Virus record (IMG/VR): IMGVR_UViG_3300042556_000244
Span: 1 to 26,245 of that record
DNA from: a virus
Length of the DNA stretch: 26,245 nucleotides
Strand: one strand, 5' to 3'
Shown here one piece after another: positions 1,157 to 26,172 of this stretch (positions are counted from its first letter, which is position 1; every line of letters starts with the position of its first letter). A program made the position numbers and the translations under genes. Below the pieces are notes generated by a model. The model saw only the letters and a program-made list of their open reading frames with translations. It made no database searches and was not told the DNA's origin.

Positions 1157-2910
1157 ACCCCGTCATCTTCGACATCGAGACTGACGCCCTCGACGGATAC
1201 ACCCGCATCCACTCCATCGTGGTCCGCGATGCGGTGACCTCGAACATCCTCGCATCGACCTACGAGGCCATCGGGCATGGGGAGTCCCTGCGGATCCTCA
1301 AGTCTGCCCCGGCCATCGTCGGGCACAACGTCATCAACTTCGACCTCCCGGTTCTCCGCAAGCTCCTCGGGTTTGAGCCTTCGTGTCAGGTCATCGACAC
1401 TCTCGTCCTCTCCCGCCTCTGCTACCCGGACATCCGCAACGACGACTACAAGCGCAACGAGTTTCCCAAGGATCTCATCGGGAGCCACTCGCTAAAGGCA
1501 TGGGGTCATCGCCTCGGGCTGCACAAGGACGTCTTCGGGGAGACCGCGGACTGGTCCAGGTGGTCCGAGGAGATGCAGGAGTATTGCGAACAGGACACCG
1601 AGGTCACCCGCAAGCTCTGGCACCACCTGGTTCAGCAGGGAATCTCCGACCGTGCATGGGAACTCGAGCACCGGGTCTCGTCCATCTGCCGTGACATCGA
1701 GGTTGCCGGGTGGACTTTCGACATCTCGGGTGCCGAGCGGCTCACCGCGCAACTCCTGACGAAGCGGCTGGAGCTGAAGGAGAACCTTGTGAAGGTCTTC
1801 CCTCCGAAGAAGGAGGTCCTGAAGACCAAGACCAAGACGATCCCGTTCAACCCCGGGAGCCGCCTCGACATCGCCCGCGGCCTGAACGAGCTCTACGGGT
1901 GGAAGCCGGTGCTGGTGACTCCCTCGGGACAGCCTCGGATCGACGAGGAGATTCTGTCAGAGCTGAAGTACCCGGAGGCGCAGATGCTCACGGAGTACCT
2001 CCTGGTGGTGAAGCGCCTCGGTCAGGTGGCCGAGGGCGAGGAGGCATGGATCAAGCTGACCAAGGGCGGGAAGATCCACGGAAGGATCAACCCGGGCGGG
2101 ACGGTGACGGGACGGGCTTCCCATGCCCGCCCGAACATGGCGCAGGTGCCTGCGGGGCGGAGCCCCTACGGCAAGGAGTGCCGTGGACTGTTCCTACCGA
2201 GGAAGGGGTGGAGGCTGGTGGGAGCAGACGCATCGGGGCTCGAGCTCCGCTGCCTCTCCCACTACCTCCACTCCTACGACGACGGTGCCTACGGCAAGGC
2301 CGTGGTGAGCGGCGACATCCATTGGGAGAACGCCATTGCCTTCGGTCTGGTCCCTTCCGGAACCAAGAGGGACAAGCACGACCCCGGCCATGAGGACCGC
2401 CGCAACCAGAGCAAGACCCTGATCTACGCGATGATTTACGGGGCAGGGGACCTGAAGCTCGGCTCGGTGGTCGGAGGGGCGGCCAAGGACGGCAAGCGCC
2501 TCCGTGCGTCTTTTGAGAAGAAGGTGGCCGCCTACAAGATGCTCAAGGAAGCGGTGGTCTCGGCTTCTCAGCGGGGATACCTGCTCGGCCTCGACGGTCG
2601 CCGGCTCCCCGTGCGTTCGCAGCACTCCGCCCTGAACACCCTGCTCCAGTCTGCGGGAGCGGTGGTGATGAAGGTGGCACTCGTCAGGTTCGTCCAGGAC
2701 ATGGCTTTGGACGGACTCGGGTGGGACAAGGACTACGCAGTCATTGGGTGGATCCATGACGAGTTCCAGATTGAGTGCCGGCCTGAGCTGGCAGAGCGTG
2801 TTGGACACGGTGCGGTCTCAGCAATCGCCGGTGCCGGAGCAGAGCTTGGGTTCCGGTGCCCGCTCGATGGCGAGTTTCGTTCCGGGGCTACATGGGCCGA
2901 GACACATTGA
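1153..2910 (+). CDS. gp5: Family A DNA polymerase with 3'-5' exonuclease, T7 gp5-like
   Basis: Replicative phage DNA polymerase, 585 aa against 704 in T7. The exonuclease residues are present: D7 and E9 in FDIETD, D64 in HNVINFD, and D148 in YCEQDTEVT. Polymerase motif A is DASGLELR (D359), motif B is RRNQSKTLIYAMIYGAG (K421, Y429), and motif C is WIHDE (H535-D536-E537). The C-terminus LDGEFRSGATWAETH aligns with the T7 end (...GPNWAICH), so the 3' end is intact. The region that in T7 holds the roughly 75-aa thioredoxin-binding insertion is only about 20 residues here (FPPKKEV to FNPGSR, residues 216-237). The ATG overlaps the previous stop. A LAGLIDADG-type frame overlaps the last part of this gene. 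Confidence 0.97.
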   Translation: MNPVIFDIETDALDGYTRIHSIVVRDAVTSNILASTYEAIGHGESLRILKSAPAIVGHNVINFDLPVLRKLLGFEPSCQVIDTLVLSRLCYPDIRNDDYKRNEFPKDLIGSHSLKAWGHRLGLHKDVFGETADWSRWSEEMQEYCEQDTEVTRKLWHHLVQQGISDRAWELEHRVSSICRDIEVAGWTFDISGAERLTAQLLTKRLELKENLVKVFPPKKEVLKTKTKTIPFNPGSRLDIARGLNELYGWKPVLVTPSGQPRIDEEILSELKYPEAQMLTEYLLVVKRLGQVAEGEEAWIKLTKGGKIHGRINPGGTVTGRASHARPNMAQVPAGRSPYGKECRGLFLPRKGWRLVGADASGLELRCLSHYLHSYDDGAYGKAVVSGDIHWENAIAFGLVPSGTKRDKHDPGHEDRRNQSKTLIYAMIYGAGDLKLGSVVGGAAKDGKRLRASFEKKVAAYKMLKEAVVSASQRGYLLGLDGRRLPVRSQHSALNTLLQSAGAVVMKVALVRFVQDMALDGLGWDKDYAVIGWIHDEFQIECRPELAERVGHGAVSAIAGAGAELGFRCPLDGEFRSGATWAETH

Positions 2911-3289
2911 GAAGAGCCTCTGGGTTGCATACCTCGCCGGATACCTCGATGGCGAAGGTTGCTTCACGGTTTGGCACGGAAGAACCCCGGCAATCTCGGT
3001 GAGCAACACCTTCCCATATGTCCTCGAGGCTCTCCGCAAAGAATGGGGTGGCTCTATTCGACGGAAAGCGGGCCGGGATCGCAGCCGCACCGCGTGGGAA
3101 TGGCGTGTCTGTGGTGAACGCGCCATTGCTGTCGCTCAGATGGTTTCCCCGTACCTCGTCGAGAAGCGGCTTCAGGCCGACCTCCTTACGCAGGTCCGGG
3201 TGTGGCCGAGTGGATCGAAACAACGGAACGACCTGGTCGCGCGGCTCAGGTCACTCAAGAGAATTGACTACGGAAAGGGTGGGGAATGA
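2867..3289 (+). CDS. LAGLIDADG-type homing endonuclease-like protein, overlapping the polymerase 3' end
   Basis: A likely free-standing site-specific DNA endonuclease. With the start at ATG 2867 it has 140 aa. Residues 19-35 (WVAYLAGYLDGEGCF) are a clear single LAGLIDADG motif with the acidic DGE. The rest follows the usual plan: a VSNT strand, LEALRKEWGGSI helix and loop, TAWEWRVCGERAI, then VSPYLVEKRLQADLL. A single motif implies a homodimer. The start is uncertain: the frame is open back to a TTG at 2744, ATG also occurs at 2756, and none has a good ribosome site, so 2867 is the shortest ATG start that keeps the domain. It overlaps the polymerase by 44 bp in the +1 frame, and its stop overlaps the next start by ATGA. 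Family confidence is higher than start confidence. Nuclease activity is inferred. Confidence 0.8.
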   Translation: MASFVPGLHGPRHIEKSLWVAYLAGYLDGEGCFTVWHGRTPAISVSNTFPYVLEALRKEWGGSIRRKAGRDRSRTAWEWRVCGERAIAVAQMVSPYLVEKRLQADLLTQVRVWPSGSKQRNDLVARLRSLKRIDYGKGGE

Positions 3290-4649: not shown

Positions 4650-4834
4650 AGGACATTGTGACCCGACTACGCGCTGTCTTTCACAACGAACGCAGCGTGG
4701 AATTGATGAACCGCGAGGCTGCTGACGAGATCGAACGTCTACGCGCCGAGCGCGACGAGGCGAGGCGCAGGCTTGCTGAACGCGCAATGGATGATCTTGC
4801 TCGACTTGATGCAGAAACGAGGTTGATGCCATGA
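4646..4834 (+). CDS. Small coiled-coil hypothetical protein (62 aa, GTG start)
   Basis: The protein opens MKDIVTRLRAVF and continues MNREAADEIERLRAERDEAR, a long charged heptad-like helix; small phage proteins with an AADEIERLRAE core are common but of unknown function. The GTG at 4646 overlaps the previous stop (GTGA), and a GAGGA upstream (4632-4636) could serve as ribosome site. The stop overlaps the next ATG. A scaffold or adaptor role would be a guess. The gene call rests on coupling and on the recurrent phage motif. Confidence 0.68.
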   Translation: MKDIVTRLRAVFHNERSVELMNREAADEIERLRAERDEARRRLAERAMDDLARLDAETRLMP

Positions 4835-5280
4835 GCGGCGAGTGCAACATCTGCGGAGAGTGGGGGTGCGTCGAGTCGGCGCATGAGCACCGCCAGGACG
4901 GCATGACCCTAAAGGATTCGGGTGCCCGTCAGACCTGGGACACGGGGAGCCGTCGGGACACCCGAGACGGTAAGGGGAGGTTCGACCTCCTGCCGTGGGA
5001 GGTCGTCTGGGCCGACGCGAAGTACATCGAGCTGGGCGCGAAGAAGTACGGCGACCGTAACTGGGAGAAGGGCCAGCCGCTCTCCCGTTACCTCGACTCG
5101 GCCTGCCGTCACCTTGCGAAGTACATGGCTGGACACCGAGACGAGCCGCACCTGTTGGCTTGTCGATGGAATCTCGCAGCGTTCATTTGGACGCTTGACC
5201 GGATCAAGGAGGGGCGCCTTCCCGGTTCGTTGGACGATATTGGGGAGACCTCCGGGGCACCTATGGACAACCATGGATGA
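4831..5280 (+). CDS. DUF5664-like protein (phage dATP/dGTP diphosphohydrolase N-terminal family)
   Basis: A 149-aa protein resembling the phage family annotated as the N-terminal domain of dATP/dGTP diphosphohydrolase. Recognisable parts are GSRRDTRDGKGRFDLLPWEV (about residues 39-58), the helix YIELGAKKYGDRNWEKG (65-81), SRYLDSACRHLAKYMAGHRD (85-104), and LLACRWNLAAFIWTLDRIKE (108-127). A short cysteine motif, CNICGEWGC (residues 5-13), precedes it and may bind metal. The usual biological suggestion for the family is nucleotide-pool control. No PurZ-like or other base-modification gene is visible here, so a link to modified DNA is not supported. The start overlaps the previous stop as ATGA. 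Activity is inferred. Confidence 0.75.
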   Translation: MSGECNICGEWGCVESAHEHRQDGMTLKDSGARQTWDTGSRRDTRDGKGRFDLLPWEVVWADAKYIELGAKKYGDRNWEKGQPLSRYLDSACRHLAKYMAGHRDEPHLLACRWNLAAFIWTLDRIKEGRLPGSLDDIGETSGAPMDNHG

Positions 5281-13377: not shown

Positions 13378-14082
13378 ATGTGTCTCCCAATCCTTGCCCC
13401 CATCGGGGCGGCCCTTGGTGCCTCTGCGGCACAGGCGGCGGCAGTCGGGACCATGGCGACCCTCGGGCTTGCAACGTCTGCCGCCGGGGCCGCTATGTCC
13501 TTCGTCGGGCAGTCACAGGCTGCTTCGGCGCAGCGGTACCAGTACAGCGAGGCTCAACGCCTTGCGAACGAGAACCTTCAGCTCCAGTACCGGCAGATGG
13601 CCGTGCGGCAGCGGGAAGAGCAGGTTTCCAAGGCGCAGCAGGTCCAGCAGATTCGCATGGAAGCCGAGCAGGCGTTCGGGTCTATCCGTGCAGAGAGCGG
13701 AGAAAGCGGTGTGTACGGGAACACCGTGGACATTCTGATGCGGGAGTTTGAGCGTCAGCAGAACGAGTCACTCTCAAACCTCGACCTGAACTACGACTTC
13801 AGGAACAGGCAGCTCCAGATTGAGCAGCTCGGTATGCGTGGTCGAGCCGAGAGCGCCATGATCCAGGCGTACCCAAACCAGACCGCTCCGAGCATCATCA
13901 CGCCGCTCCTTCAGGTTGGCGGCTCGGCGCTGAACACGGTGAACATGTACGGGAACTTCTCAAGGATGCCGGCGTTCGGCGGCAACCCGGCCCCCCAGGT
14001 CTCGAGCCTTGCCCGACGCGAGGCATTCGTGGCCGGGCTTCCTGCCTTCTACCGCACCCCCGGAATGAACCGCTGGTACTGA
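13378..14082 (+). CDS. gp14: Internal virion protein B, T7 gp14-like
   Basis: 234 aa (T7: 196). gp14 is ejected early and forms a pore in the outer membrane. The N-terminus MCLPILAPIGAALGAS resembles T7 MCWAAAIP and is hydrophobic for about 50 residues (VGTMATLGLATSAAGAAMSF). A long coiled coil follows (NENLQLQYRQMAVRQREEQV) and the family core AFGSIRAESGESGVYGNTVD with FERQQNESLSN. The C-terminus has a second hydrophobic patch (APSIITPLLQVGGSALNTVN). The ATG is 7 bp after the gp13 stop and lacks a clear ribosome site. Confidence 0.9.
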   Translation: MCLPILAPIGAALGASAAQAAAVGTMATLGLATSAAGAAMSFVGQSQAASAQRYQYSEAQRLANENLQLQYRQMAVRQREEQVSKAQQVQQIRMEAEQAFGSIRAESGESGVYGNTVDILMREFERQQNESLSNLDLNYDFRNRQLQIEQLGMRGRAESAMIQAYPNQTAPSIITPLLQVGGSALNTVNMYGNFSRMPAFGGNPAPQVSSLARREAFVAGLPAFYRTPGMNRWY

Positions 14083-14086
14083 ACCG

Positions 14087-16495
14087 ATGGCAAAGTCCCT
14101 CACCCCAAACGACCTTACTCAGGTTGCCATTCAGCCTTCGGCTTCCCCCGTCTCCCTAAACATCCTCCCGGCCCCCGGGCAGCGATTCAGCGGAAACACC
14201 CTTCAGCAGATTGGTGAGTCTCTGGCAGCCTTCAGCCCATCCTTGCAGGGGATGCTTGCTCAGAGAGTGGAGGAGGACAAGCGGGCGCTGGCTGCCCAAG
14301 GGGCGGCGGTTGACTTCTCCCGTGCCTTTGACGTCGATCCGAATGCCGCCCCAGAAGATCGACAGCGGGCGCTCAATGAAGCGTTCAAGGAGTCGATTTC
14401 GAGGCAGGGTGGCCCGGACTCAGCCAACCCATTCTTTCTAATCGCTGCACGGCAGAACTTCGGGCGAACGGTCGGCCTGCGCTATCGGAACGCCCTCGCA
14501 TCGCTCCGTGAGAAGGCTACGGATCCGGACAACCCGGTGGCGTTCGGGGAGATCGCCCGTCAAGCGGCAGAGATGGCAGGCTCAGACGCGGTCACGGACG
14601 ATGTCTATGGAGCAGCCGGGTTCGCCTCGGTAGCGCAAGAAGTAAACGCCGAGATGAGCGGGCGGTTCCAAGAGGAACTACGCAAGCGGCAGGACTTCCT
14701 CGCGGTGGAGCGCACCCAGCAGGGGATCGCGGATGGCCTTCTCACGGCTGCGGCAAGCGGCTCTGACTTCACTCCCGAATCGCTTGTCGGGCAGACCATT
14801 CAGCGGTCTATCGACGCCATTCAAACCACCTCGTCCGACCCTGAGACCGCACGAAGGACGGTCATTGGTGCGGCCCAGATTGCCCTAGGACAGATCAAGG
14901 ACGAACAGGATGCCGAAGAAGCCGTCGCAGCCTTGAGCGAGATGCGGTTCGGGAAGGCATCAATCAGAGAGAACCCGGCATTGTTCGTCCAGCTCCTTCG
15001 GATCAAGGATCAGCGGCTCGACGAGATTGCCGCTGAGGGTGCCCGAGGAGAACGAATCCTGAAGCAGCAGGTTCAGAGAGGGATCCGGGAAATGTATGCC
15101 CTCGGGCTCAACGAGAAGGTGACCCGGGCAATCATGGACGGCAACCAAGAAGGCGCACAGCAGGCGGTTGAGTCCGTGTTCGATCAATACATCACGAACA
15201 ACCCGGATACCTCCCCGACGATCCGAGACGCCCTCCGCAGGGAACTCCAGCTTGAGTTGGACCCGCTCTACGGAGCGGTCAGCCGGCAGCGCAACGCATC
15301 GAACGACGCAGCCTTTGAGAGCGGGTTCGGGCTCATTGACGATGGCACCATCATTGATTCAGGCGTCCTCAGAATGTGGGCGCAGGACAACCAGTTGACC
15401 ATTGAGCAGCAGATGCAGCTCAACCGATACTTCTCGGAGAACGTCGGCGTGGTCCGATCCTCTGCCACCTACTACGCGCAGAACAAGGGCAAGGAGATCA
15501 TCAATAGGGTTCTTCAGGGAATGGCCGCAAGCGGGAAGTTGCCCATGGGGATGAACGGGCAGCCAACGGTTACACCGACTGCACAGGATGAAGCACAGGC
15601 GCTTGAGGTTGAGTGGCGTACTGGTGCCTATGAGCAAGTCCAGAAGTTCGTCCGAGGGGACGTCCGAGACCCCGCATCGGGTTCTTCCTACCAGGACATC
15701 AAGCAGCAGAGCGGTGTTGAGACTGCTAACCGAGCGATTAGCGGTGTACTTGATGCGTGGTACGACAAGCAGATTGAGGCGTACAACCGAAAGAGCACGG
15801 CTACCAAGGCAGCAGTCGATGCCGGCCTACAGGTCTCCGCGCAGTCTCCTGCCGCGACCTTTGCCGAGGAATCCGCATCGTCTCAAAAGATGGTCTACGA
15901 CACCATCGCCAAGCGCCTCGAGTCGGAGACGATGAACGAGCAGCAGCAGAAGACTGCCGTACTAGAGGCCATTGAGACCGAAATCGCTGATATCAATCGA
16001 ATTGGCTACGAAGTCGGATTCGGGTATGGGGGGGCCTTCGAGCCCGTCCAACTTGCTGATCGCCTCGGGTCCATGTGGCGGGTGGCGTCTGAGAAGGGGA
16101 CTGTAGGGGTCAAGCAGCTCGGATGGGTGTGGGATTCGAGCGTCGCCTTTACCCCGGACGTCATCCTTCACCACTACGGCAAGGTCAAGCGGAGCATTGC
16201 CAATGGGCTGGACGCTTATGAAGTGATCCGGAACGAGACCAGAGACGGTCTCCCCGTGTTTGGTGTGGTGCTTCCGCACCGCCGAGACGCTGTCGGGTAC
16301 GCATTCTCGGTGCCCCTGTTCTCTTCTTTCGCACAACTCGGAGAAGCCGATACGGTCAACGAGGTCATGGACGCCATGTCCATCCCAACGGATCTTCGAC
16401 AGCAATTTGTGGCCCGTCAAGCAACCCTCGTCCGAATGCGGGCGGCGGTGTCTGCCGAAGCGGAATCACCTAACAAGGTCAGCCCAATCGACTGA
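14087..16495 (+). CDS. gp15: Internal virion protein C, T7 gp15-like
   Basis: 802 aa (T7: 747). In T7, gp15 and gp16 form the periplasmic tunnel that carries DNA into the cell. The protein is almost wholly soluble and helical, as expected: PSLQGMLAQRVEEDKRALAA near the N-terminus, many Gln/Glu-rich helices, and a C-terminal segment VMDAMSIPTDLRQQFVARQA. No enzymatic motif is visible. The call depends on size, helical composition and position between gp14 and gp16 more than on a diagnostic motif. It starts 5 bp after gp14 and ends 2 bp before gp16. Confidence 0.88.
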   Translation: MAKSLTPNDLTQVAIQPSASPVSLNILPAPGQRFSGNTLQQIGESLAAFSPSLQGMLAQRVEEDKRALAAQGAAVDFSRAFDVDPNAAPEDRQRALNEAFKESISRQGGPDSANPFFLIAARQNFGRTVGLRYRNALASLREKATDPDNPVAFGEIARQAAEMAGSDAVTDDVYGAAGFASVAQEVNAEMSGRFQEELRKRQDFLAVERTQQGIADGLLTAAASGSDFTPESLVGQTIQRSIDAIQTTSSDPETARRTVIGAAQIALGQIKDEQDAEEAVAALSEMRFGKASIRENPALFVQLLRIKDQRLDEIAAEGARGERILKQQVQRGIREMYALGLNEKVTRAIMDGNQEGAQQAVESVFDQYITNNPDTSPTIRDALRRELQLELDPLYGAVSRQRNASNDAAFESGFGLIDDGTIIDSGVLRMWAQDNQLTIEQQMQLNRYFSENVGVVRSSATYYAQNKGKEIINRVLQGMAASGKLPMGMNGQPTVTPTAQDEAQALEVEWRTGAYEQVQKFVRGDVRDPASGSSYQDIKQQSGVETANRAISGVLDAWYDKQIEAYNRKSTATKAAVDAGLQVSAQSPAATFAEESASSQKMVYDTIAKRLESETMNEQQQKTAVLEAIETEIADINRIGYEVGFGYGGAFEPVQLADRLGSMWRVASEKGTVGVKQLGWVWDSSVAFTPDVILHHYGKVKRSIANGLDAYEVIRNETRDGLPVFGVVLPHRRDAVGYAFSVPLFSSFAQLGEADTVNEVMDAMSIPTDLRQQFVARQATLVRMRAAVSAEAESPNKVSPID

Positions 16496-16497
16496 AC

Positions 16498-19400
16498 ATG
16501 CAGGACAACCAGAACTCCGGGCGGTACTTCTCGCAGGAAGAACTCGACGCCATCGTCTCCGGGGCTGTCGTGCCAAAGATGCCGACTGACCTCGGGGCTC
16601 CCCAGGAAGCAACCGGATCGTCTCCTGTGTGGGATACCGCGGACACCCTCATGGCTGTCCCGCGGGGTGCCGTCGGGGCAGCGAAGGGCGTATGGAACTT
16701 TGCCGATTGGGCAACATTCGACCTTCTCCCGGACTGGCATACCAATCCCCTCGGTTCGTCCAAGTCGATAGTGGGTGGTTTCGTAGAGGGAATTGCCCAG
16801 GTCGGAACCGGAATGCTTGTCGGTGGCGGAGTCCTTGGGGCTGTCTCCAAGATTCCGGGGGCCGTGGGTACGGCTGCTTCGTGGCTTGGCGGGGCTGGGG
16901 GCGGCGCGGCAGGCGTCGTCCGTTCCGGTCTCTCGAAGGGAGCCATTGCTGACTTCGTCGCGTTTGAGGCCCACGACGCCCGACTCTCAGACCTCCTTGT
17001 TCAGGCGGACAACCCCCTCCTAAACAACGTCGTCACGCAATACCTGGCGTCCGACATGGAGGATGGAGAACTCGAGGGGAGGCTCAAGAACGCCCTAGAG
17101 GGCGGCGTGACTGGCGTGGCCCTGGATGGCGTCGTGTCCTTGCTCAAGGGGTCCGTAAAGGCGTCCAAGAACTACCGGGCAGCAAAGGCGGCCGGTCGCT
17201 CTGAAGAAGAAGCAGTCAAGGCTGCCATGGACGCGGGTGCGTCCGACATCCGGCGGGGAGAGAGTGTCTTGTCCAAAGAGCAGGACAACCTCCTTACCAA
17301 GGCTGAGTTTGAGCAGACCGGCGGCGCGGGGGCTGAACTGAAGGAAGCGGAGGAACTGCTAGCCCGTGCCGACGATGAAGCGTCTCTTGAGGTGATGTCT
17401 GCTGGTCGGGCTGGTACCCAGTCCATTGAGGACATCCTCCAGGCGTTCAATGATGGCGATGTCGTTGATGTCAAGCGACCGTCTACGAGCGATGCCGGAT
17501 ATCCCGTGAAGCGCGGAGCTGACGCCATGATAAACCGGATCAACCGGGAGGTCGGGCAGGCCGCCGGGATCACCGCAGAGGAAGGGCGGTTCATGGCTCA
17601 ACTCATTGAGCGCATGGGGGTGTCCAACTTCGAGGACATCGGCATCCGGTTCAGGAAGCTCCGCCCTGGAGCGAACGGATCGTTCGATTTCATCAGGAAC
17701 GTCATCAACATCTCTCGGAAGGCCGAGGCGACCGGGGAGACGAAGCGCACGTTCGTCCATGAGGTGTGGCACTCGCTCACCGAGTACCTGGACGATTCGA
17801 TGCTCTCCGCGATGAAGCGGGACTACGAGAAAGCCCACGTCGCATTCTTCGACAAGTACGGGGTTAGCCCACGGGATGCGGTGAGCGGGAACAAGCAGGT
17901 CGCCAAGAGCCTTGCCAAGGTCATCAGAGACAACAGCATCGACATTAGTGAGTGGTATCGGCTCATCAACTTGGATGAGTGGGTTGCCGAGACCCTGACG
18001 GACGCTTCGTTCCGTCAGCTCAATCTTGAGGCGGACACCAAGACCGTCCTCGGGTTCATGCGGTATTTCCTGAAGAACACGCTGACCGAAATCAAGTCCG
18101 TCTTCGGAGGTGCCAAGTACGACAAGCTCTCGAAGGACTGGCTGAACGGTCGCTACCAGTACGCGGCTGTTGACAAGATCACCAAGAGGCCGCACTCATT
18201 CCGCCAGACGGCTCGAGGAAAGGAAATCCTGCCAGGCAGGGGGGCGTTGGGCGGTCAGCGCATGGCTGAGTACCGGGCTTACGGTGAGTATGTGACGCCG
18301 GACATGAGCGGGATCGCGTTCTCGGCCAGTCGGGTCGGTGACCCCAACTACAAGGTCGATGAGGTTCGGGCAACCGCAGTCGATCCCAATGTCGCCAAAG
18401 AGATGAGGGACATCTTGGCTGGTGGAGGGGACCGAGCTGCCATCCGAGACGCGGTCAAGCGATACGACGACGCTGGGCTCATCAACTTCAACCGCATCCT
18501 TCGCGGGCAGGGGACGGACGAGGAGCTCTACGAGGAACTTGTCGGAGTCCTCCGGCAATTTGAAGCAAATCCTCGGTCGTTCTCTAAGGCACCGAAGGGA
18601 AGCAACAAGGCAACTTCCGACGCGGCCAAGGCTGCCCTGCTCGCCATGGAAGAGACCGGCGGAGTCAACATTGCGGCCATGCGGGCCATGGTGGAGAAGG
18701 GGACCATCACGGCCAAGGAGGTGTTTGATCTTGCCCCCGTGCTCGAGGGAGTTGAGATGCACCTTCGGAGCAAGATGCTTGAGGCCCTCCGAAACCCGTC
18801 TGCCGCCGATCCCGTGCTGATGGCAAAGGCGTGGACATCCATTGCCGGAAGCGTTGAGAAGTTCTTCTCATACGCGGGCAAGACGCTTCAAGTCCGTCAG
18901 GCATTCGATACCTCTAAGCGGTTCATGGACGAACTCTCAAGGCTCTCGCCAGAGCAGCGGAAGATCATGGCTGAGAGCATGGCGGACACCCTTCAGTACC
19001 TCGTCCTTGACCCCAAGACTGGCAAGGAGATGGCGAAGGTCCTGACCGAGAGTTCAATGATGAAGGGGGTCCGAATCATCACGGAACTCCACCGGAACTC
19101 CATCCTCAGCGGCCCCAAGACTGCCGCCGTCAACTTCTGGAACGGGGTTCAGATGCTTCTCCAGCCCGTCGAGCGCGCCGTCGGGAGACTTGGTTCCGGG
19201 CAAACAGACATTGCGGCCCGGGAGCTCTCGACGATCACTCGCTACATGGGGGAGAGCCGCGAGGCTGCCCGAGCCGCAGCGGCATCGTTCATCGCAGAAG
19301 GCGACTCAATCGCACTTGGACGAGGTAACACCCAGTTTGGTGAGTTCAGTCCACAACGGGCCGTCTCAAGCCGTAACGCCAGATTCCTGAACACGGTTGA

Positions 19401-21339
19401 TCCGGCTACCGGAGGGGTGAACAGGACCGTTGCCGGAACCGCTGTCGATTTCGTCGGACAAGTCGTGGGCACCCCGACTCGCCTGATGGGTACCTCAGAT
19501 GAGTTCTTCACGACCCTCTCAGCGCGGTCGGAAGCCGATGTCGTACTCCGCCGGATTGTCGCCAAGAACATGAAGCGTGGGCTCACCGACTCTGCGGTCA
19601 GCGCAGAGGTGCATCGTCTCAAGCAAATCATGTTTGTTGACGGTCAGCTCTACACCCGAAAGACCGTACTTGAGCGGGGGATGCGAATGGCGCGGGAGAA
19701 GTATTTGCCGAAGGCTCTCCTCAAGACGCTTTCCGATTCCATCGCGGCAAAGACCGGGGCGTCCGCGACGGACCCCTCGGTGGTCTCCGAGGCGAACCGG
19801 ATGTTCAGCCAAATGATCGACCCCTCCACGGGCAAGGTCAAGTCCATGTCGGAAATCCGAAAGATGCCCGATGCTGACGTCTTGATCCCGAGCCTGGATG
19901 CCGCAGGTGGGAGAGCCGTCGCGGAGCCGCTGTTCCTCTCGGAGGTCCAGCGATTCGTTGACCAGAACTGGGACCAGTACGTCGATTCGGACATGATGCC
20001 AATCGGTGGGCGTTTCCAGGATCAGGTCGGTCAGGACTTCAGGATTCTCCAGCAGGCATCTCGGGAGATTGAGCGCCGCGTCCGGGAGACCACCTGGAAG
20101 CGCGACTACGAGGACATGGCGGAATCATCGGTGTGGGGTACCCGTCTCGTCGGAAACATCGGCCGCTCCGTGTCGGGTGCCGTCAATCAAGTCCCGGCAC
20201 TTCAGCTAGTCGTTCCGTTCATTAGGACTCCGACCAATCTGCTCGCGTATGTCACGGACCGGAACCCCGTCGGCCGCAGTCTTGCGTGGGTGCAGGCGGC
20301 GCGGGCCGGGGACAAGGAAGCCATGGCCGAGGCCATCGGCAGATTCTCGACCGGCACGGTCTTCTACACCACGGCAGTCGCCTTGGCCGCCAATGGGATG
20401 ATTACGGGCAAGGGTCCGAAGGACACCGAACTACGCAAGCAGCTCCTTGCCGCGGGGTGGCAGCCGTACTCGTTCCGAATCGGAGATACGTTCCTGTCCT
20501 ACGGACGAAACGACCCGGTGGCGACCTTCTTCGGGCTTGTGGCGGACACCTTTGAAGTCGCTAACGCCACCTACGACCCGACCCCAGACGAGCTTGGTGC
20601 TATGGAGACGCTGTCCAAGGCGGTCCTCACCTCGGTCGCCAACAACGTCACGACCAAGAGCTACCTGCGCGGTATCTCGACGGTCATTGAGGCACTCGGG
20701 GGTAATGAGGCAGCCATTGGTCAGCTCAAGCGGCAGTACGCGGGAGCCGTGGTCCCGAACTTCCTTGCCCAAGGCGAGAACTACGTCCTCGATTCAGACA
20801 TCCGTGAAACCAGGACGATGCTTGATGCCATTCGCGCACGGACACCGTTCCTGAACGACAACGTGGACAAGGTCAGGAATGCCACCGGCGACCCGATCTC
20901 CGGTGCTGAGGGTCCGTTCAGCATGTGGCTCCCAACGAACGCACGGAGACTCAGCAAGGACCCAGTCAAGCGGGAGCTCGCCTCGAGCCTCATCTCAGTC
21001 GGCTCGCCTCGTCGGGTACTTCCCGGCGGGATTGACTTGAAGAACATCAGGCTCAAGAGCGGACAGTCTGCTTACGACCGTCTTCAGGAGCTTTCCGGTG
21101 AAGTCCGGATTGGGGGACGAACGCTGAAGCAGCAACTCCAGTCCCTCATCTCGAGCCCCTTCTACCAGGGTCTCCCAGAGATGGGTCAAGACAACTTTGA
21201 CTCCCCCCGTGTGTCCCTGGTCCGAGGAAACGTGTCGTCGTTCCGTCGGGCAGCAATGCAGCAACTAATGAAGGAATCCCCGGATCTCGCCGTCGCGGTC
21301 GCCAAGAGCCGCGAAGCCAAGGCGTCCATGTTCCGCTGA
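16498..21339 (+). CDS. gp16: Internal virion protein D, T7 gp16-like, with an HEXXH peptidase-like domain
   Basis: A 1613-aa ejection protein (T7: 1318). Layout: a polar N-terminus; a Gly/Ala-rich hydrophobic segment (about residues 92-140: GGFVEGIAQVGTGMLVGGGV); helical linker; then a zinc-peptidase-like region at about 385-500 with VINISRKAEAT, RTFVHEVWHSLTEYL (H421, E422, H425), and LDEWVAETL, where E494 or E498 could be the third metal ligand. A helical body follows. The C-terminal part (about 1190-1613) contains QLVVPFIRTPTNLLAYVTDR (I1242 onward) and FLSYGRNDPVATFFGLVADT, segments shared by large phage ejection proteins. The lytic transglycosylase domain found at the T7 gp16 N-terminus is not recognisable. 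Peptidase activity is inferred. The ATG follows gp15 by 2 bp, without a good ribosome site. Confidence 0.88.
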   Translation: MQDNQNSGRYFSQEELDAIVSGAVVPKMPTDLGAPQEATGSSPVWDTADTLMAVPRGAVGAAKGVWNFADWATFDLLPDWHTNPLGSSKSIVGGFVEGIAQVGTGMLVGGGVLGAVSKIPGAVGTAASWLGGAGGGAAGVVRSGLSKGAIADFVAFEAHDARLSDLLVQADNPLLNNVVTQYLASDMEDGELEGRLKNALEGGVTGVALDGVVSLLKGSVKASKNYRAAKAAGRSEEEAVKAAMDAGASDIRRGESVLSKEQDNLLTKAEFEQTGGAGAELKEAEELLARADDEASLEVMSAGRAGTQSIEDILQAFNDGDVVDVKRPSTSDAGYPVKRGADAMINRINREVGQAAGITAEEGRFMAQLIERMGVSNFEDIGIRFRKLRPGANGSFDFIRNVINISRKAEATGETKRTFVHEVWHSLTEYLDDSMLSAMKRDYEKAHVAFFDKYGVSPRDAVSGNKQVAKSLAKVIRDNSIDISEWYRLINLDEWVAETLTDASFRQLNLEADTKTVLGFMRYFLKNTLTEIKSVFGGAKYDKLSKDWLNGRYQYAAVDKITKRPHSFRQTARGKEILPGRGALGGQRMAEYRAYGEYVTPDMSGIAFSASRVGDPNYKVDEVRATAVDPNVAKEMRDILAGGGDRAAIRDAVKRYDDAGLINFNRILRGQGTDEELYEELVGVLRQFEANPRSFSKAPKGSNKATSDAAKAALLAMEETGGVNIAAMRAMVEKGTITAKEVFDLAPVLEGVEMHLRSKMLEALRNPSAADPVLMAKAWTSIAGSVEKFFSYAGKTLQVRQAFDTSKRFMDELSRLSPEQRKIMAESMADTLQYLVLDPKTGKEMAKVLTESSMMKGVRIITELHRNSILSGPKTAAVNFWNGVQMLLQPVERAVGRLGSGQTDIAARELSTITRYMGESREAARAAAASFIAEGDSIALGRGNTQFGEFSPQRAVSSRNARFLNTVDPATGGVNRTVAGTAVDFVGQVVGTPTRLMGTSDEFFTTLSARSEADVVLRRIVAKNMKRGLTDSAVSAEVHRLKQIMFVDGQLYTRKTVLERGMRMAREKYLPKALLKTLSDSIAAKTGASATDPSVVSEANRMFSQMIDPSTGKVKSMSEIRKMPDADVLIPSLDAAGGRAVAEPLFLSEVQRFVDQNWDQYVDSDMMPIGGRFQDQVGQDFRILQQASREIERRVRETTWKRDYEDMAESSVWGTRLVGNIGRSVSGAVNQVPALQLVVPFIRTPTNLLAYVTDRNPVGRSLAWVQAARAGDKEAMAEAIGRFSTGTVFYTTAVALAANGMITGKGPKDTELRKQLLAAGWQPYSFRIGDTFLSYGRNDPVATFFGLVADTFEVANATYDPTPDELGAMETLSKAVLTSVANNVTTKSYLRGISTVIEALGGNEAAIGQLKRQYAGAVVPNFLAQGENYVLDSDIRETRTMLDAIRARTPFLNDNVDKVRNATGDPISGAEGPFSMWLPTNARRLSKDPVKRELASSLISVGSPRRVLPGGIDLKNIRLKSGQSAYDRLQELSGEVRIGGRTLKQQLQSLISSPFYQGLPEMGQDNFDSPRVSLVRGNVSSFRRAAMQQLMKESPDLAVAVAKSREAKASMFR

Positions 21340-21348
21340 GAAACACCC

Positions 21349-24300
21349 ATGCCAGAGTTCTACGAACTTCCGTACAAGTCACGGACCTTCTACACCGGAA
21401 ACGGCGTCCAGAAGGATTTCCCCGTCACGTTCGCCGGCGGATCCCCGCTTGACCGCGGACACGTCCAGGTGTTCCTGAACCAGGTGTCGTACACCTCGAA
21501 CTGGAGCATCGTGACGATCAACGGGCAGGACTACGTCCGGTTCGTGGACGCTCCCCCTCAGCCGAACGACGGTGTCCCCAACGTCATGCTGAAGCGCGTG
21601 ACCCCTGGGAACGAGTCGGACCGGGTGGTCGATTTCACGGACGGGTCCATCCTCAGCGCGGCGGACCTGGACAAGGCGCAACTGAACTCCTTGTACGTCT
21701 CGCAGGAGTCCGCCGACCTCTTCCTCGACCAGGGCGGCGCTGCGGTCAACGTCAACTTCGACCAGACCATCGGCGGGGAGAAGACCTTCACGGGTGTCGT
21801 CGAGATCGCCCAGAGCGGTGCCTTCGTCCACAAGCCCCAGACCCCGATCTCCAAGGTCGCACAGGGGAAGCAGTACGTCCTCGCGGCCGCGACCGTGGAC
21901 GGGAACGTCGAGTGGATGCCGACGACGGTGGCTGCGGACGGTCTTCCTGCCAACGTGGTCCTCACCGACACGCCTGCGGCCAGCAATCAGGTCATCACCG
22001 GACCGAAGCGGTTCGAGAACACCCTTCAGGTCCTCAACGGCAACCTGAAGGTCGATGCCCAGAACACCGTGAACAAGGCGCTGGTCGCCAACGACAACGC
22101 CGGGACCATGACCCTCCAGCCCGTGGTCAACGGGGTTCGGCTCGGTTCAGCGAATGCCGCGGTCTCCACGGGAACCGTGACGATCTCCCCGGAGTCCATC
22201 GGTGCGCTCCCTGCCAACCTCTCGGGAGGCGCGACCCAGACGGTGTCCGTACCGATCAACTTCACGGCCTCCATCGGGCTCGGTGACGACGCCTCCGCCG
22301 ACACGCTGACCATCAACAGCAGTCTCGTCATCCCGCCCAGCGCAGAGGCAGGAAAGGTCCTGACATGCCTCGGACCCGCCGGAAACGCGACTTGGGCCCC
22401 CGCTCCCCAGACCGGCATCACGTCGATCAACGGGGATACCGGAGTTGGTGGGTCCGTCACGCTTGATGCTGCGGACGTCGGTGCGGCTTCCCTCAACGGG
22501 GCTCCCCAGACCATCAACGCGCAGACCTCGTTCTCGAACCACGTCACCCTCGGGGACAACGAACTCGACAACATCACGGTCCTCGGCCGCCTCAAGTACC
22601 CCGTGACCGGCCACGCGGCAGGAAAGGTCCTGTTCTGCCAGCCCGACGGAGAGGCTGTCTGGAACAACCTCCCGGCATCCGTGACCAGCGTCAACGGAAA
22701 GAACGGTGCAGGCAACTCCGGGGCGGTCACCCTGACCGCAGCGGACGTCGGGGCGGTCGGCGTGAGCGGAAACCAGTCCATCGCGGACACCAAGACGTTC
22801 ACCGGGACGGTCTCAGCGAACAACGCCGAGGTCACCAACCAGCTGACCTACAACGTCGGGACCAACCTCCAAGGCAAGGTCCTGACCTCCGATGCCAGCG
22901 GTCGCGCCTCATGGGCCTCCCCTCCCGCCACCGGGGTCACCTCCATCAACAACCAGACGGGACCTGCGGTCACCCTGACCGCGGCGGACGTCGGTGCAGT
23001 CTCGGTCGGGACCACGCAGGAGGTCACGGGTGCCAAGACGTTCTCGAACAACGTCAACCTCGGCGTTGACCAGTTTGACATCATCACGGTGAACGGGGAA
23101 CTCCGGATCCCCGGAGGAACCAATGGTCAGGTCCTCACGCAGACCGCGGCCGGCAAGGCCGTCTGGCAGACCCCGGAACCAGCAGGGGTCACCTCGGTCA
23201 ACGGCGGAAACGGGGCCGTGACCATCACGGCTGCGGACCTCGGTGCCTACACGGCCCAGACCATCCCGACCGCAACGACCGGGCAGAAGGGACTGATGCA
23301 GGTCGGCAGCGGCCTCAGCGTCAACGCAAGCGGCGTGGTCAGCGTGAACCAGAATGCCTCGCTCCCGGTCGCCAGCGCCTCGGTCCTCGGCGGCATCAAG
23401 GTTGGCAGCAACCTGTCCATCAACCAAGACGGCGTTCTCTCGGCCGCGATCAGCCAGAACACCGGGGTCACCACCTTCAACGGTCGGGCAGGGGACATCT
23501 CGCCGACGTCGGGCGACTACACCGCGGCTCAGGTCACCAACGCGGTCACCACCAACTCGGCGCAGGACGTCTCCGGATCCAAGAAGTTCACGGCCAACCA
23601 GACGGTCTCCACGGCGACTCCCGCGGTCGGTACCAACGGGTCCTCTGGCGTCCTCCTCAACACCAGCGGTTTGGTCCAGGTGCAGCGCACCTCGGCTAAC
23701 GACCGGGTGTTCCAGGGTCACGCCCCGGCAGGCGGAGTCACCTCGTACATCGAGGCGGACGGCGATGCCACCTTCAGCGGAGTGGTGACCGCCAACGGCG
23801 GATTCGTCACCACGGCAGGCATGACCGTGGGCGACAACACCCAAGACGGCATCAACATTACGGGAACCCTGAAGATCGGCGGGAACGGTTCAGCTGGTGT
23901 TGGCAAGGTCCTGACCTGCACAAACAACGACGGAAACACCGAGTGGCAGATGCCGGCCAACGCCCCCGTGACCTCGGTCAACGGAATGACCGGCGTGGTC
24001 AGCGTGAGCCTCGACGGCGAGGCCAGCCCCACCGGGAACCTCAACGGCGTCACCAAGGGAACCACCCAGACCATCAGCGGCCAAAAGACGTTCACGGCCA
24101 CCACGAACTTCAACGGCGACGTCAACCTCGGTGACGCAGTCGGTGACGTCATCAAGGTCGATGGCACCCTCCGCATCCCTTCGGGTGCCGGCGCGGGACG
24201 CTTCCTCCAGTCGGATGCGAGCGGCAATGCCTCATGGGCAGCGGTCCCCACGGCCCCCGTCAGCTCGGTCAACGGTGCCACGGGTGCCGTCACAATCATT

Positions 24301-26172
24301 GCTGACGGAACCGAGACGGCCACGACCAAGAGCCTCGGTGCCGTGGACAAGACGTCGAACCAGACCATCGGCGGAAACAAGACGTTCTCCGGTACGGTCA
24401 CGTTCAACAACAACGTCACCATCGGAGCCACCACGGCTTCCTCGCTGACCGTCAACTCGACCCCCGTGTTCCAGAGCGGGGGTGCCGCCGCAGGCCGTGT
24501 GCTGACCTGCACGGACACCAACGGGAACACCCAATGGGCCGACCCGAGCGCACCCCCGGTCACCTCGGTCAACGGACGCACCGGGGCCGTGGTCATCACG
24601 GCCGACGACGCAGGGACCGGAATCGGGGCAGTCACCAAGTCAACCGCCCAGGACATCACGGGCACCAAGACGTTCACGGTCGCCCAGAACTTCCACGGAG
24701 ACGTCAAGCTCGGTGACGCCATCGGGGACACCGTCACCCTCAACGCCAAGATGCTTGTCCCCGCTGACAAGGGAGCCAACAAGGTCCTGACCTGCGTCGA
24801 TGCGGCTACGGGACAGGTTGGCTGGGCGGCTCCGAGGGTGAACTCGGTGCGTGGTTCAGCCATTGCCCTTGCGAACGCCCAGACCGGGGACGTGTCCATC
24901 AGCGCAGCCGACGTCGGTGCCCCGACCATCGCGGCGCTCAACACGGTGTCTACAGCGGCGTCGAACGCCCAGACCACGGCAAACACGGCGAACGCGAACG
25001 CGAGCAACGCGCAAGCCACGGCAAACAGCAAGTTGTCCGCCGTGTCCCACACGGTCACCGCGCTCGGTCCTGCGGGAAGCGAGACCAACTACACCTGCCT
25101 CAGCGGCGACGGTACCGCAGGGAACCCCCTCAAGGTCGAGCAGGCGGCACCGTGCGGACCGGCCGCCGGTGACCTGTCAGGTGCCTATCCGAACCCGACC
25201 ATCGGGGCCAACAAGGTCACCTTTGCCAAGATGCAGTTGGTCCCGCCGGCCAAACTGCTCGGTGGACCAACCACGGGGGTCAACAACGGACAGGTGCAGG
25301 CCATCGGGCTCGGGGCTGGTCTCACCTTCGACGGAAGCGGGAACCTGTCCAACAGCGCCATCCCGACCGTGTCCGCATCGGGAAACAACACGTTTAGCGG
25401 AACGAACACGTTCACGGGAAACGTGCAGGTCGGTTCGGCTCTCGGAGCGACCAATAGCACCACCATCCACGGCCCCCTCACGGCGAACGGAAACGTCACC
25501 ATCGGTGATGCGGCAACCGACGCCTTGGTCGTCAAGTCGGCGGTCAAGATTGAATCCGGGTCCCCGTCGGCGGGGAAGGTGCTCACCTGCGACGGCAGCG
25601 GCAACGCGACTTGGGAGAATCCCGCGACAACGACTCTCCTGAGTTCCTCTAATACTTGGACCAGTTCAAACACCTTCAATAGCACCCTGACCGCAAACGG
25701 CGCCCTGACCGCAAACGGCAACACCACGCTTGGAAACGAGGCAAGTGATGTCATCATCGCCCAGGGTGTCCTGAAGATCAAGAAACTCGGAACTAATCCG
25801 GCCGTTGGAAATGTCCTCGTTTGCGTAAACGCCGACGGAACCACAGAGTGGCAGTCTCCGATGACCTACGTCGGAGCAACACAATGCTTCGTTATGAACT
25901 CAAGCGCAGGCTTGAATACTCCTGCCACGATTTCCGGACAGCCTTCAAGCACATTCTCTACAGGAACAGGTTATGCGAGGTCTCCGAGATCGGCAACCGG
26001 AACGTGGACCGGAACTTGGCGCTATTACATCGCATCCGGTACCGGTCTCGGAGAGAACATCGGAACAGTCGTCATTACGCCGAGTTCGTGTACCTACACA
26101 GCTGTTGCTGGTCTCAAGCCGACGGACCTTAGCACTGGAAACGTGAGTTTCATGCTTGCGAGGACCTCCTAA
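21349..26172 (+). CDS. gp17: Tail fibre protein, T7 gp17-like N-terminus with long repeat shaft
   Basis: A 1607-aa receptor-binding fibre, about three times T7 gp17 (553). Residues 1-130 match the T7 tail-fibre anchor domain: FYTGNGVQKDFPVTFAGG, MLKRVTPGNESDR, VVDFTDGSILSAADLDKAQL, NSLYVSQESADLFLD. The shaft contains 11 degenerate modules with TKTFTGTV / NGTLRIP / GKVLTCT-D-GN-W / VTSVNGxTGAVTITAADVGA elements. Two longer interruptions occur, one with ASASVLGGIKVGSNLSI, the other with a coiled coil of Ala/Asn/Thr repeats (STAASNAQTTANTANANAS). The tip (from about 25860) has no S74 chaperone or other domain I recognise and ends TGNVSFMLARTS. Codon use is very C-rich until the last 0.6 kb. Confidence 0.93.
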   Translation: MPEFYELPYKSRTFYTGNGVQKDFPVTFAGGSPLDRGHVQVFLNQVSYTSNWSIVTINGQDYVRFVDAPPQPNDGVPNVMLKRVTPGNESDRVVDFTDGSILSAADLDKAQLNSLYVSQESADLFLDQGGAAVNVNFDQTIGGEKTFTGVVEIAQSGAFVHKPQTPISKVAQGKQYVLAAATVDGNVEWMPTTVAADGLPANVVLTDTPAASNQVITGPKRFENTLQVLNGNLKVDAQNTVNKALVANDNAGTMTLQPVVNGVRLGSANAAVSTGTVTISPESIGALPANLSGGATQTVSVPINFTASIGLGDDASADTLTINSSLVIPPSAEAGKVLTCLGPAGNATWAPAPQTGITSINGDTGVGGSVTLDAADVGAASLNGAPQTINAQTSFSNHVTLGDNELDNITVLGRLKYPVTGHAAGKVLFCQPDGEAVWNNLPASVTSVNGKNGAGNSGAVTLTAADVGAVGVSGNQSIADTKTFTGTVSANNAEVTNQLTYNVGTNLQGKVLTSDASGRASWASPPATGVTSINNQTGPAVTLTAADVGAVSVGTTQEVTGAKTFSNNVNLGVDQFDIITVNGELRIPGGTNGQVLTQTAAGKAVWQTPEPAGVTSVNGGNGAVTITAADLGAYTAQTIPTATTGQKGLMQVGSGLSVNASGVVSVNQNASLPVASASVLGGIKVGSNLSINQDGVLSAAISQNTGVTTFNGRAGDISPTSGDYTAAQVTNAVTTNSAQDVSGSKKFTANQTVSTATPAVGTNGSSGVLLNTSGLVQVQRTSANDRVFQGHAPAGGVTSYIEADGDATFSGVVTANGGFVTTAGMTVGDNTQDGINITGTLKIGGNGSAGVGKVLTCTNNDGNTEWQMPANAPVTSVNGMTGVVSVSLDGEASPTGNLNGVTKGTTQTISGQKTFTATTNFNGDVNLGDAVGDVIKVDGTLRIPSGAGAGRFLQSDASGNASWAAVPTAPVSSVNGATGAVTIIADGTETATTKSLGAVDKTSNQTIGGNKTFSGTVTFNNNVTIGATTASSLTVNSTPVFQSGGAAAGRVLTCTDTNGNTQWADPSAPPVTSVNGRTGAVVITADDAGTGIGAVTKSTAQDITGTKTFTVAQNFHGDVKLGDAIGDTVTLNAKMLVPADKGANKVLTCVDAATGQVGWAAPRVNSVRGSAIALANAQTGDVSISAADVGAPTIAALNTVSTAASNAQTTANTANANASNAQATANSKLSAVSHTVTALGPAGSETNYTCLSGDGTAGNPLKVEQAAPCGPAAGDLSGAYPNPTIGANKVTFAKMQLVPPAKLLGGPTTGVNNGQVQAIGLGAGLTFDGSGNLSNSAIPTVSASGNNTFSGTNTFTGNVQVGSALGATNSTTIHGPLTANGNVTIGDAATDALVVKSAVKIESGSPSAGKVLTCDGSGNATWENPATTTLLSSSNTWTSSNTFNSTLTANGALTANGNTTLGNEASDVIIAQGVLKIKKLGTNPAVGNVLVCVNADGTTEWQSPMTYVGATQCFVMNSSAGLNTPATISGQPSSTFSTGTGYARSPRSATGTWTGTWRYYIASGTGLGENIGTVVITPSSCTYTAVAGLKPTDLSTGNVSFMLARTS
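21853..25869 (+). repeat. Degenerate tandem modules in the fibre gene (11 copies)
   Basis: The GKVLT-type strand motif (consensus GKVLTC-D--GN-xW) recurs at about 21868, 22355, 22621, 22874, 23127, 23905, 24206, 24497, 24781, 25576 and 25812. Most spacings are 236-301 bp; two are about 780-795 bp and correspond to inserts, and the first is 487 bp. Each module also carries a TKTF / NVTLGD / NGxLxIP stretch, and most carry a VTSVNGxTGAV linker. Copies differ at many bases, so they are old duplications, but they are still likely recombination substrates. Confidence 0.85.

What the first reader, a model, noticed from the sequence alone, without database searches (positions are those of the whole stretch)
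17650..18000. Zinc-peptidase-like HEVWH motif embedded in the ejected gp16-like protein
H421-E422-x-x-H425 lies in a plausible active helix (RTFVHEVWHSLTEYL), preceded by a strand VINISRK and followed 69-73 residues later by DEWVAE, which could supply a glutamate ligand. T7 gp16 instead carries a transglycosylase. An injected protease could process the ejection tunnel, cut periplasmic proteins or crosslinked peptides in the wall, or disarm a host defence on entry.
Basis: partly seen in the sequence, partly recalled or inferred. Interest (0 to 1): 0.66.

Follow-up and report, generated by a model that had tools for sequence, protein, structure and literature searches.

The report
Swappable protease cassette in ejected protein
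A T7-like virus carries, inside the giant protein it is thought to inject at the start of infection, a zinc-protease domain that otherwise near-identical viruses either lack or replace with a different zinc protease, which suggests an interchangeable tool aimed at the host rather than part of the injection machinery.

Summary
HEVWH is residues 421-425 (window 17758-17772) of a 1613-aa phrog_6651 internal virion protein (gp16-like). In 14 distinct homologues (96 to 24% identity) H421, E422, H425 and E494 are invariant; E498 is not, so E494 is the likely third zinc ligand. The predicted fold is the zincin core; best structural matches are IrrE/PprI, selecase and lethal factor (weak E-values).

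The domain sits in a ~325-aa cassette in a fixed slot (residues ~281-609). Three within-species comparisons (flanks 97-98% nt identical) show the slot filled or empty; one species has three states: this zincin, nothing, or a distantly related zincin. Against another species the cassette is 94-98% identical in DNA while flanks are 43-80%, so it has moved horizontally. It is not needed for ejection and does not replace the transglycosylase (a cultured phage has both). By analogy with T7 it would face the cytoplasm.

Best reading: an injected, host-dependent protease effector of the polyvalent-protein MPTase kind, carried by a T7-type ejection protein. Substrate unknown; self-processing is the main rival. 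Cultured P. putida KT2440 phages with a gp16 zincin make it testable.

The parts
16498..21339 (+). gp16-like internal virion (ejection) protein D, 1613 aa, carrying the cassette
   Evidence: phrog_6651 E 7e-45; isolates' homologues annotated internal virion protein D
17338..18324 (+). exchangeable cassette, residues ~281-609 (block shared at 94-98% nt with L003; the block missing from L020 is residues ~274-609)
17485..18192 (+). zincin-like metallopeptidase domain (modelled residues 330-565; conserved core 336-555)
   Evidence: alignments A3/A4, model, fold searches
17758..17772 (+). HEVWH: zinc-binding H421 and H425, catalytic E422
   Evidence: invariant in 14 distinct homologues
17977..17979 (+). 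E494, probable third zinc ligand in LDEWVAE
   Evidence: invariant in 14 homologues; aligns with the EF(V/I)AE glutamate of a second zincin family by hhalign
16687..17295 (+). gp16 N-terminal conserved block (residues ~64-266), with weakly hydrophobic stretch 91-123
   Evidence: shared with isolates without a cassette; hydropathy
20113..21291 (+). gp16 C-terminal conserved block (residues ~1206-1598)
   Evidence: phrog_6651 match 1226-1494
13378..14082 (+). gp14-like ejection protein
   Evidence: PF24072 T7_gp14 E 3e-25
14087..16495 (+). probable gp15-like ejection protein, 802 aa (by position only)
   Evidence: no Pfam, PHROG or NCBIfam match of weight; inferred from gene order

Best explanation
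Residues ~281-609 of the gp16-like ejection protein are an optional cassette that holds an intact zincin-type metallopeptidase (H421, H425 and E494 bind zinc, E422 activates water). Shown here: intact conserved active site, zincin topology, purifying selection, insertion in a fixed slot between the conserved N- and C-terminal gp16 blocks, presence/absence within three phage species, replacement by a different zincin, and horizontal movement of the cassette. Inferred: it is packaged and ejected with gp16; because the slot follows the first conserved, weakly hydrophobic block, as in the T7 topology model, it is placed in the host cytoplasm in a few copies at the moment of DNA entry; there it cuts a host protein whose presence or form differs among hosts, most likely a defence or stress component, so the cassette is gained, lost and swapped as hosts change. 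Substrate unknown.
For: Catalytic set invariant in 14 homologues down to 24% identity; omega about 0.17-0.19 in the zincin in three usable comparisons, 0.41 in a fourth. Model matches the MPTase core described for polyvalent proteins (PMC5512222); PDB hits are dominated by zincins, BFVD hits include polyvalent proteins and Bordetella phage BB8 internal protein D. hhalign to the second cassette family: probability 96.6, E 6e-10, aligning HExxH and E494. Filled/empty pairs at 97-98% nt in flanks: window/L020, L003/L078 and L082, L004/L085; L080 has the other zincin. Cassette synonymous divergence window-L003 is 0.105 versus about 0.60 in flanks. L051 carries the domain together with ART-PolyVal (E 3e-19) and a second HExxH in one gp16-like protein. 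T7 topology: the region after TMH I is cytoplasmic (PMC8954989).
Against: No biochemical evidence. Cytoplasmic placement rests on analogy with T7 gp16, which is not closely related. Self-cleavage of gp16 cannot be excluded. No defence target or immunity partner was identified.
Confidence: 0.6

Rival explanations
1. Self-processing protease: the zincin cuts gp16 itself, in the head or after ejection, to free part of the giant protein.
For: Iyer et al. propose this for polyvalent MPTases and cite processing of P1 DdrB before packaging (PMC5512222). Large multi-domain members such as L051 (2612 aa) could need cutting.
Against: Empty alleles exist, so the core gp16 needs no cut; no second effector domain that it could release is recognisable in the window protein; N4 vRNAP, with a similar domain, is packaged uncut (PMC5512222).
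Confidence: 0.22
2. Cell-wall or envelope enzyme: the domain opens the wall or trims envelope proteins to let the ejection tunnel through, replacing the T7 transglycosylase.
For: No SLT domain was found in this gp16, and T7 gp16 has one (PMC8954989).
Against: Cassette-free siblings exist, and the one scanned (L078) also lacks a detectable SLT; YIMV22061 has SLT and zincin together; in T7 topology the slot would face the cytoplasm; zincins of this type cut proteins, not cross-linked wall peptides (general knowledge).
Confidence: 0.07
3. Inactive or non-proteolytic HExxH domain: a structural spacer, or an HExxH enzyme of another chemistry such as the alphaKG-HExxH fold.
For: HExxH is not unique to peptidases; the N4 vRNAP paper mentions radical-SAM associated HExxH enzymes for its C1 domain.
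Against: The catalytic E422, both His and E494 are invariant; the swap partner keeps the same set; fold hits are peptidase zincins.
Confidence: 0.08
4. Filled/empty alleles are assembly artefacts of metagenome contigs, so the cassette is really constant.
For: All window-type loci are metagenomic contigs; no isolate carries this exact family.
Against: Six empty contigs in four lineages, all in frame, several with their own linker sequence; cultured phages show the same pattern with the second zincin family (ErraM and PSTNGR1 with, VSW-3 and SVOphi44 without).
Confidence: 0.03

Closest known systems
Zincin-like MPTase domains of polyvalent proteins (Iyer et al. 2017, PMC5512222), including the HExxH domain of N4 vRNAP
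   Same: HExxH plus Glu on a later helix, three-stranded sheet with N-terminal helix, inside a very large virion protein, found with ART-PolyVal in a relative (L051)
   Different: The carrier is the T7-type ejection protein D; no Pfam, NCBIfam or PHROG model covers this domain; the slot shows within-species presence, absence and replacement, which the passages of that paper read here do not discuss
T7 gp16 (internal virion protein D)
   Same: Position in the ejection gene cluster, size class, conserved N-terminal block followed by a long C-terminal part
   Different: Sequence family phrog_6651 rather than phrog_342; no transglycosylase found; zincin cassette added. One relative of the zincin (L048) does sit in a phrog_342 protein
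T4 internal proteins Ip1-Ip3 (PMC12373910)
   Same: Works like: non-essential, variable proteins packaged in the head and injected to disarm host restriction
   Different: Separate small genes encoding inhibitors, not a protease cassette inside an ejection protein; no homology claimed
Anthrax lethal factor family (M34), IrrE/PprI, selecase
   Same: Best PDB fold neighbours; HExxH zincins
   Different: Weak structural scores (E at least 0.03), no sequence match; membership of any of these not shown
gp16 zincins of cultured phages: ErraM group (P. putida), PSTNGR1, BB8, YIMV22061
   Same: HExxH zincin in internal virion protein D of Autographiviridae isolates, related by profile comparison
   Different: They belong with the second zincin family (HExxH then EF), not the TFVHEVWH family of the window

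Membership tests
zincin metallopeptidases (HExxH) | HExxH conserved | tested here: met
   invariant in 14 distinct rows
zincin metallopeptidases (HExxH) | third zinc ligand on a downstream helix | tested here: met
   E494 invariant, in helix 492-513 of the model; aligned to the EF(V)AE glutamate of the second family
zincin metallopeptidases (HExxH) | fold in which the two His and the Glu meet at zinc | tested here: inconclusive
zincin metallopeptidases (HExxH) | zinc binding and protease activity | not testable with these tools
   needs purified protein
polyvalent-protein MPTase | zincin core within a large multi-domain protein of a phage or plasmid | tested here: met
   1613-aa internal virion protein; relative L051 combines it with ART-PolyVal
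polyvalent-protein MPTase | delivered into the host on entry | not testable with these tools
   inferred from the ejection-protein context
polyvalent-protein MPTase | membership of one of the 12 published MPTase clades | not tested
   clade alignments not available here
gp16-like internal virion protein D | family match and gene order | tested here: met
   phrog_6651; gp14-like gene, 802-aa gene, this gene, T7 tail-fibre N-terminal domain
T7 gp16 proper | N-terminal lytic transglycosylase | tested here: not met
   no SLT match in Pfam; so it is a gp16-like protein, not filed as T7 gp16 proper
gp16-like internal virion protein D | ejected into the host, crossing the inner membrane | not testable with these tools
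   analogy only (PMC8954989)

The most novel reading that the evidence does not exclude
T7-type ejection protein D contains a dedicated effector slot into which phages plug interchangeable protease (and ART) modules by recombination, so that host-disarming enzymes arrive in the cytoplasm together with or ahead of the genome; allele choice tracks host defences.
Probability: 0.4. Interest if true: 0.82.

Novelty: new variant of a known kind. Interest (0 to 1): 0.64.

Why it matters
Zincins in giant phage proteins were described in 2017 with function only proposed (PMC5512222). Here nature supplies near-isogenic phages with and without the enzyme, and a swap for another one, which separates its role from the ejection function. 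Related cultured phages on P. putida KT2440, a laboratory strain, allow a direct test of whether injected proteases act on the host or merely process their carrier.

Tried and rejected
L007-L011 were chance hits: they are DNA polymerase III alpha-like proteins sharing MGVSNFED. The genome-contig scan found no relative, so the family looks virus-bound at that sensitivity. Isolated phage genomes hold no member of the window's own zincin family. PDB sequence searches gave only chance hits. PADLOC gave nothing. The model of the second zincin (pLDDT 63.7) was too poor for a fold search, so the last one was left unused. Alignment A5 has one mistyped residue in the ErraM row; the conclusion drawn from it was repeated with A6, which is free of it. 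The wall-enzyme reading was set aside because SLT and zincin coexist in one protein and cassette-free siblings exist. E498 was rejected as third ligand because it varies.

Full report
Observation. The ORF at 16498-21339 (+) encodes 1613 aa. HEVWH is at residues 421-425 (17758-17772) and DEWVAE at 493-498 (17974-17991). The protein has nine histidines; HExxH occurs in 0.28% of shuffles, and no other main ORF of the window has it. The protein matches phrog_6651, internal virion protein. It follows a T7 gp14-like gene and an 802-aa gene in the gp15 position, and precedes a T7-type tail fibre. The window is a virus record of 26,245 bases.

The domain is conserved. Scans of viral contigs gave relatives of the region from 96% down to about 23% identity. 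In alignment A4 (14 distinct rows) H421, E422, W424, H425, Y487 and E494 are invariant.

Fold. The AlphaFold model of residues 330-565 reached pLDDT 74.4 and pTM 0.71, though the other four models were near 50. Its order is N-terminal helices, three strands, the HExxH helix, further helices, and a helix that begins at 492 and holds E494. Iyer et al. [quoted passage not shown] Foldseek against the PDB gives PprI/IrrE, selecase, lethal factor and Wss1-like entries, with E of 0.03 or more. Against viral models the best two hits are uncultured phage proteins (E about 6e-6 and 9e-6), and lower hits include polyvalent-protein entries and internal protein D of Bordetella phage BB8. No Pfam, NCBIfam or PHROG model covers the region with any weight.

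A swappable cassette. Locus L020 encodes a gp16 98-99.5% identical to the window's but lacks residues ~274-609 cleanly and in frame. The same pattern recurs: L003 (filled) versus L078, L079 and L082 (empty), and L004 (filled) versus L085 (empty), with flanks 97-98% identical in DNA where measured. In the L003 species a third allele, L080, has another HExxH protein in the slot, LLHEVVHAGT with NVKEFVAEAL downstream. Profile comparison shows that the two zincins are related (probability 96.6, E 6e-10), aligning HExxH with HExxH and E494 with the EF glutamate. Between window and L003, DNA identity is 68-80% before residue 281, 94-98% from 281 to about 600, and 43-56% over the next 160 residues. 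Synonymous divergence is 0.105 in the zincin and about 0.60 in the flanks. The cassette has therefore moved between species recently. Selection on the zincin is purifying (omega 0.17-0.19 in three comparisons, 0.41 in one).

Wider setting. Nine gp16 homologues from named phage records, and L020, have no HExxH. More distant gp16-like proteins carry our zincin (L049, L050), our zincin plus ART-PolyVal and a second HExxH (L051, 2612 aa), or the second zincin family in about 2000-aa proteins that keep the gp16 C-terminal block. L048 has our zincin in a phrog_342 protein, the PHROG named internal virion protein with endolysin domain. Among cultured phages, ErraM and 24 near-identical P. putida KT2440 phages, Providencia phage PSTNGR1, Bordetella phage BB8 and Limnohabitans phage YIMV22061 carry a gp16 zincin, whereas VSW-3 and SVOphi44 do not (HExxH itself was checked in ErraM, PSTNGR1, BB8 and YIMV22061, and the other P. 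putida phages were taken from their 99% identity). YIMV22061 also has an SLT transglycosylase at residues 16-118.

Mechanism. Because siblings without the cassette exist, it is not required for the tunnel. In T7, gp16 has a periplasmic N-terminus, a membrane region (243-410), a cytoplasmic domain and a second membrane region (PMC8954989). The slot here follows the N-terminal conserved block with its weakly hydrophobic stretch, so by analogy it would lie in the cytoplasm; this step is inference. An optional, conserved, exchanged enzyme delivered at entry is best explained as an effector on a host protein, comparable in logic to T4 Ip proteins, which are injected and block subtypes of Type IV restriction enzymes (PMC12373910). 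Self-processing remains the main rival.

Novelty. Zincins in polyvalent proteins are known. What appears new is the carrier (T7-type ejection protein D; the terms 'ejection', 'T7-like' and 'Autographi' do not occur in the text of Iyer et al.) and the within-species slot polymorphism. A literature search found no paper with both 'internal virion protein' and 'zincin', within an open-access library only.

Noticed in passing
window 2744-3289: Possible LAGLIDADG-type homing endonuclease (weak, E 0.003, below the Pfam cut-off) overlapping the 3' end of the DNA polymerase A gene.
   Followed up: no
L051 5829-13664: 2612-aa gp16-like protein with two HExxH motifs and an ART-PolyVal domain (E 3e-19): several predicted effectors in one ejection protein.
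   Followed up: partly
L080 5087-9799: Same species as L003 but a different zincin in the slot; a second small contig (L094) holds part of it.
   Followed up: partly
window 18340-20000 (gp16 residues ~614-1100): The part of gp16 just after the cassette is less conserved between species (21-60% aa in places, higher omega) than both ends, so it may be a second variable region.
   Followed up: no
L092 1313-8464: 2384-aa gp16-like protein with HELAH and a near-threshold match to Mycobacterium phage L5 gp82 (E 2e-5).
   Followed up: no
window 21349-26172: 1607-aa tail fibre with T7 fibre N-terminus and long degenerate repeats (SVNGxxGxVTLTAADVGA type).
   Followed up: no
window 4831-5280: dATP/dGTP diphosphohydrolase-like N-terminal domain (PF18909, E 3e-20).
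   Followed up: no
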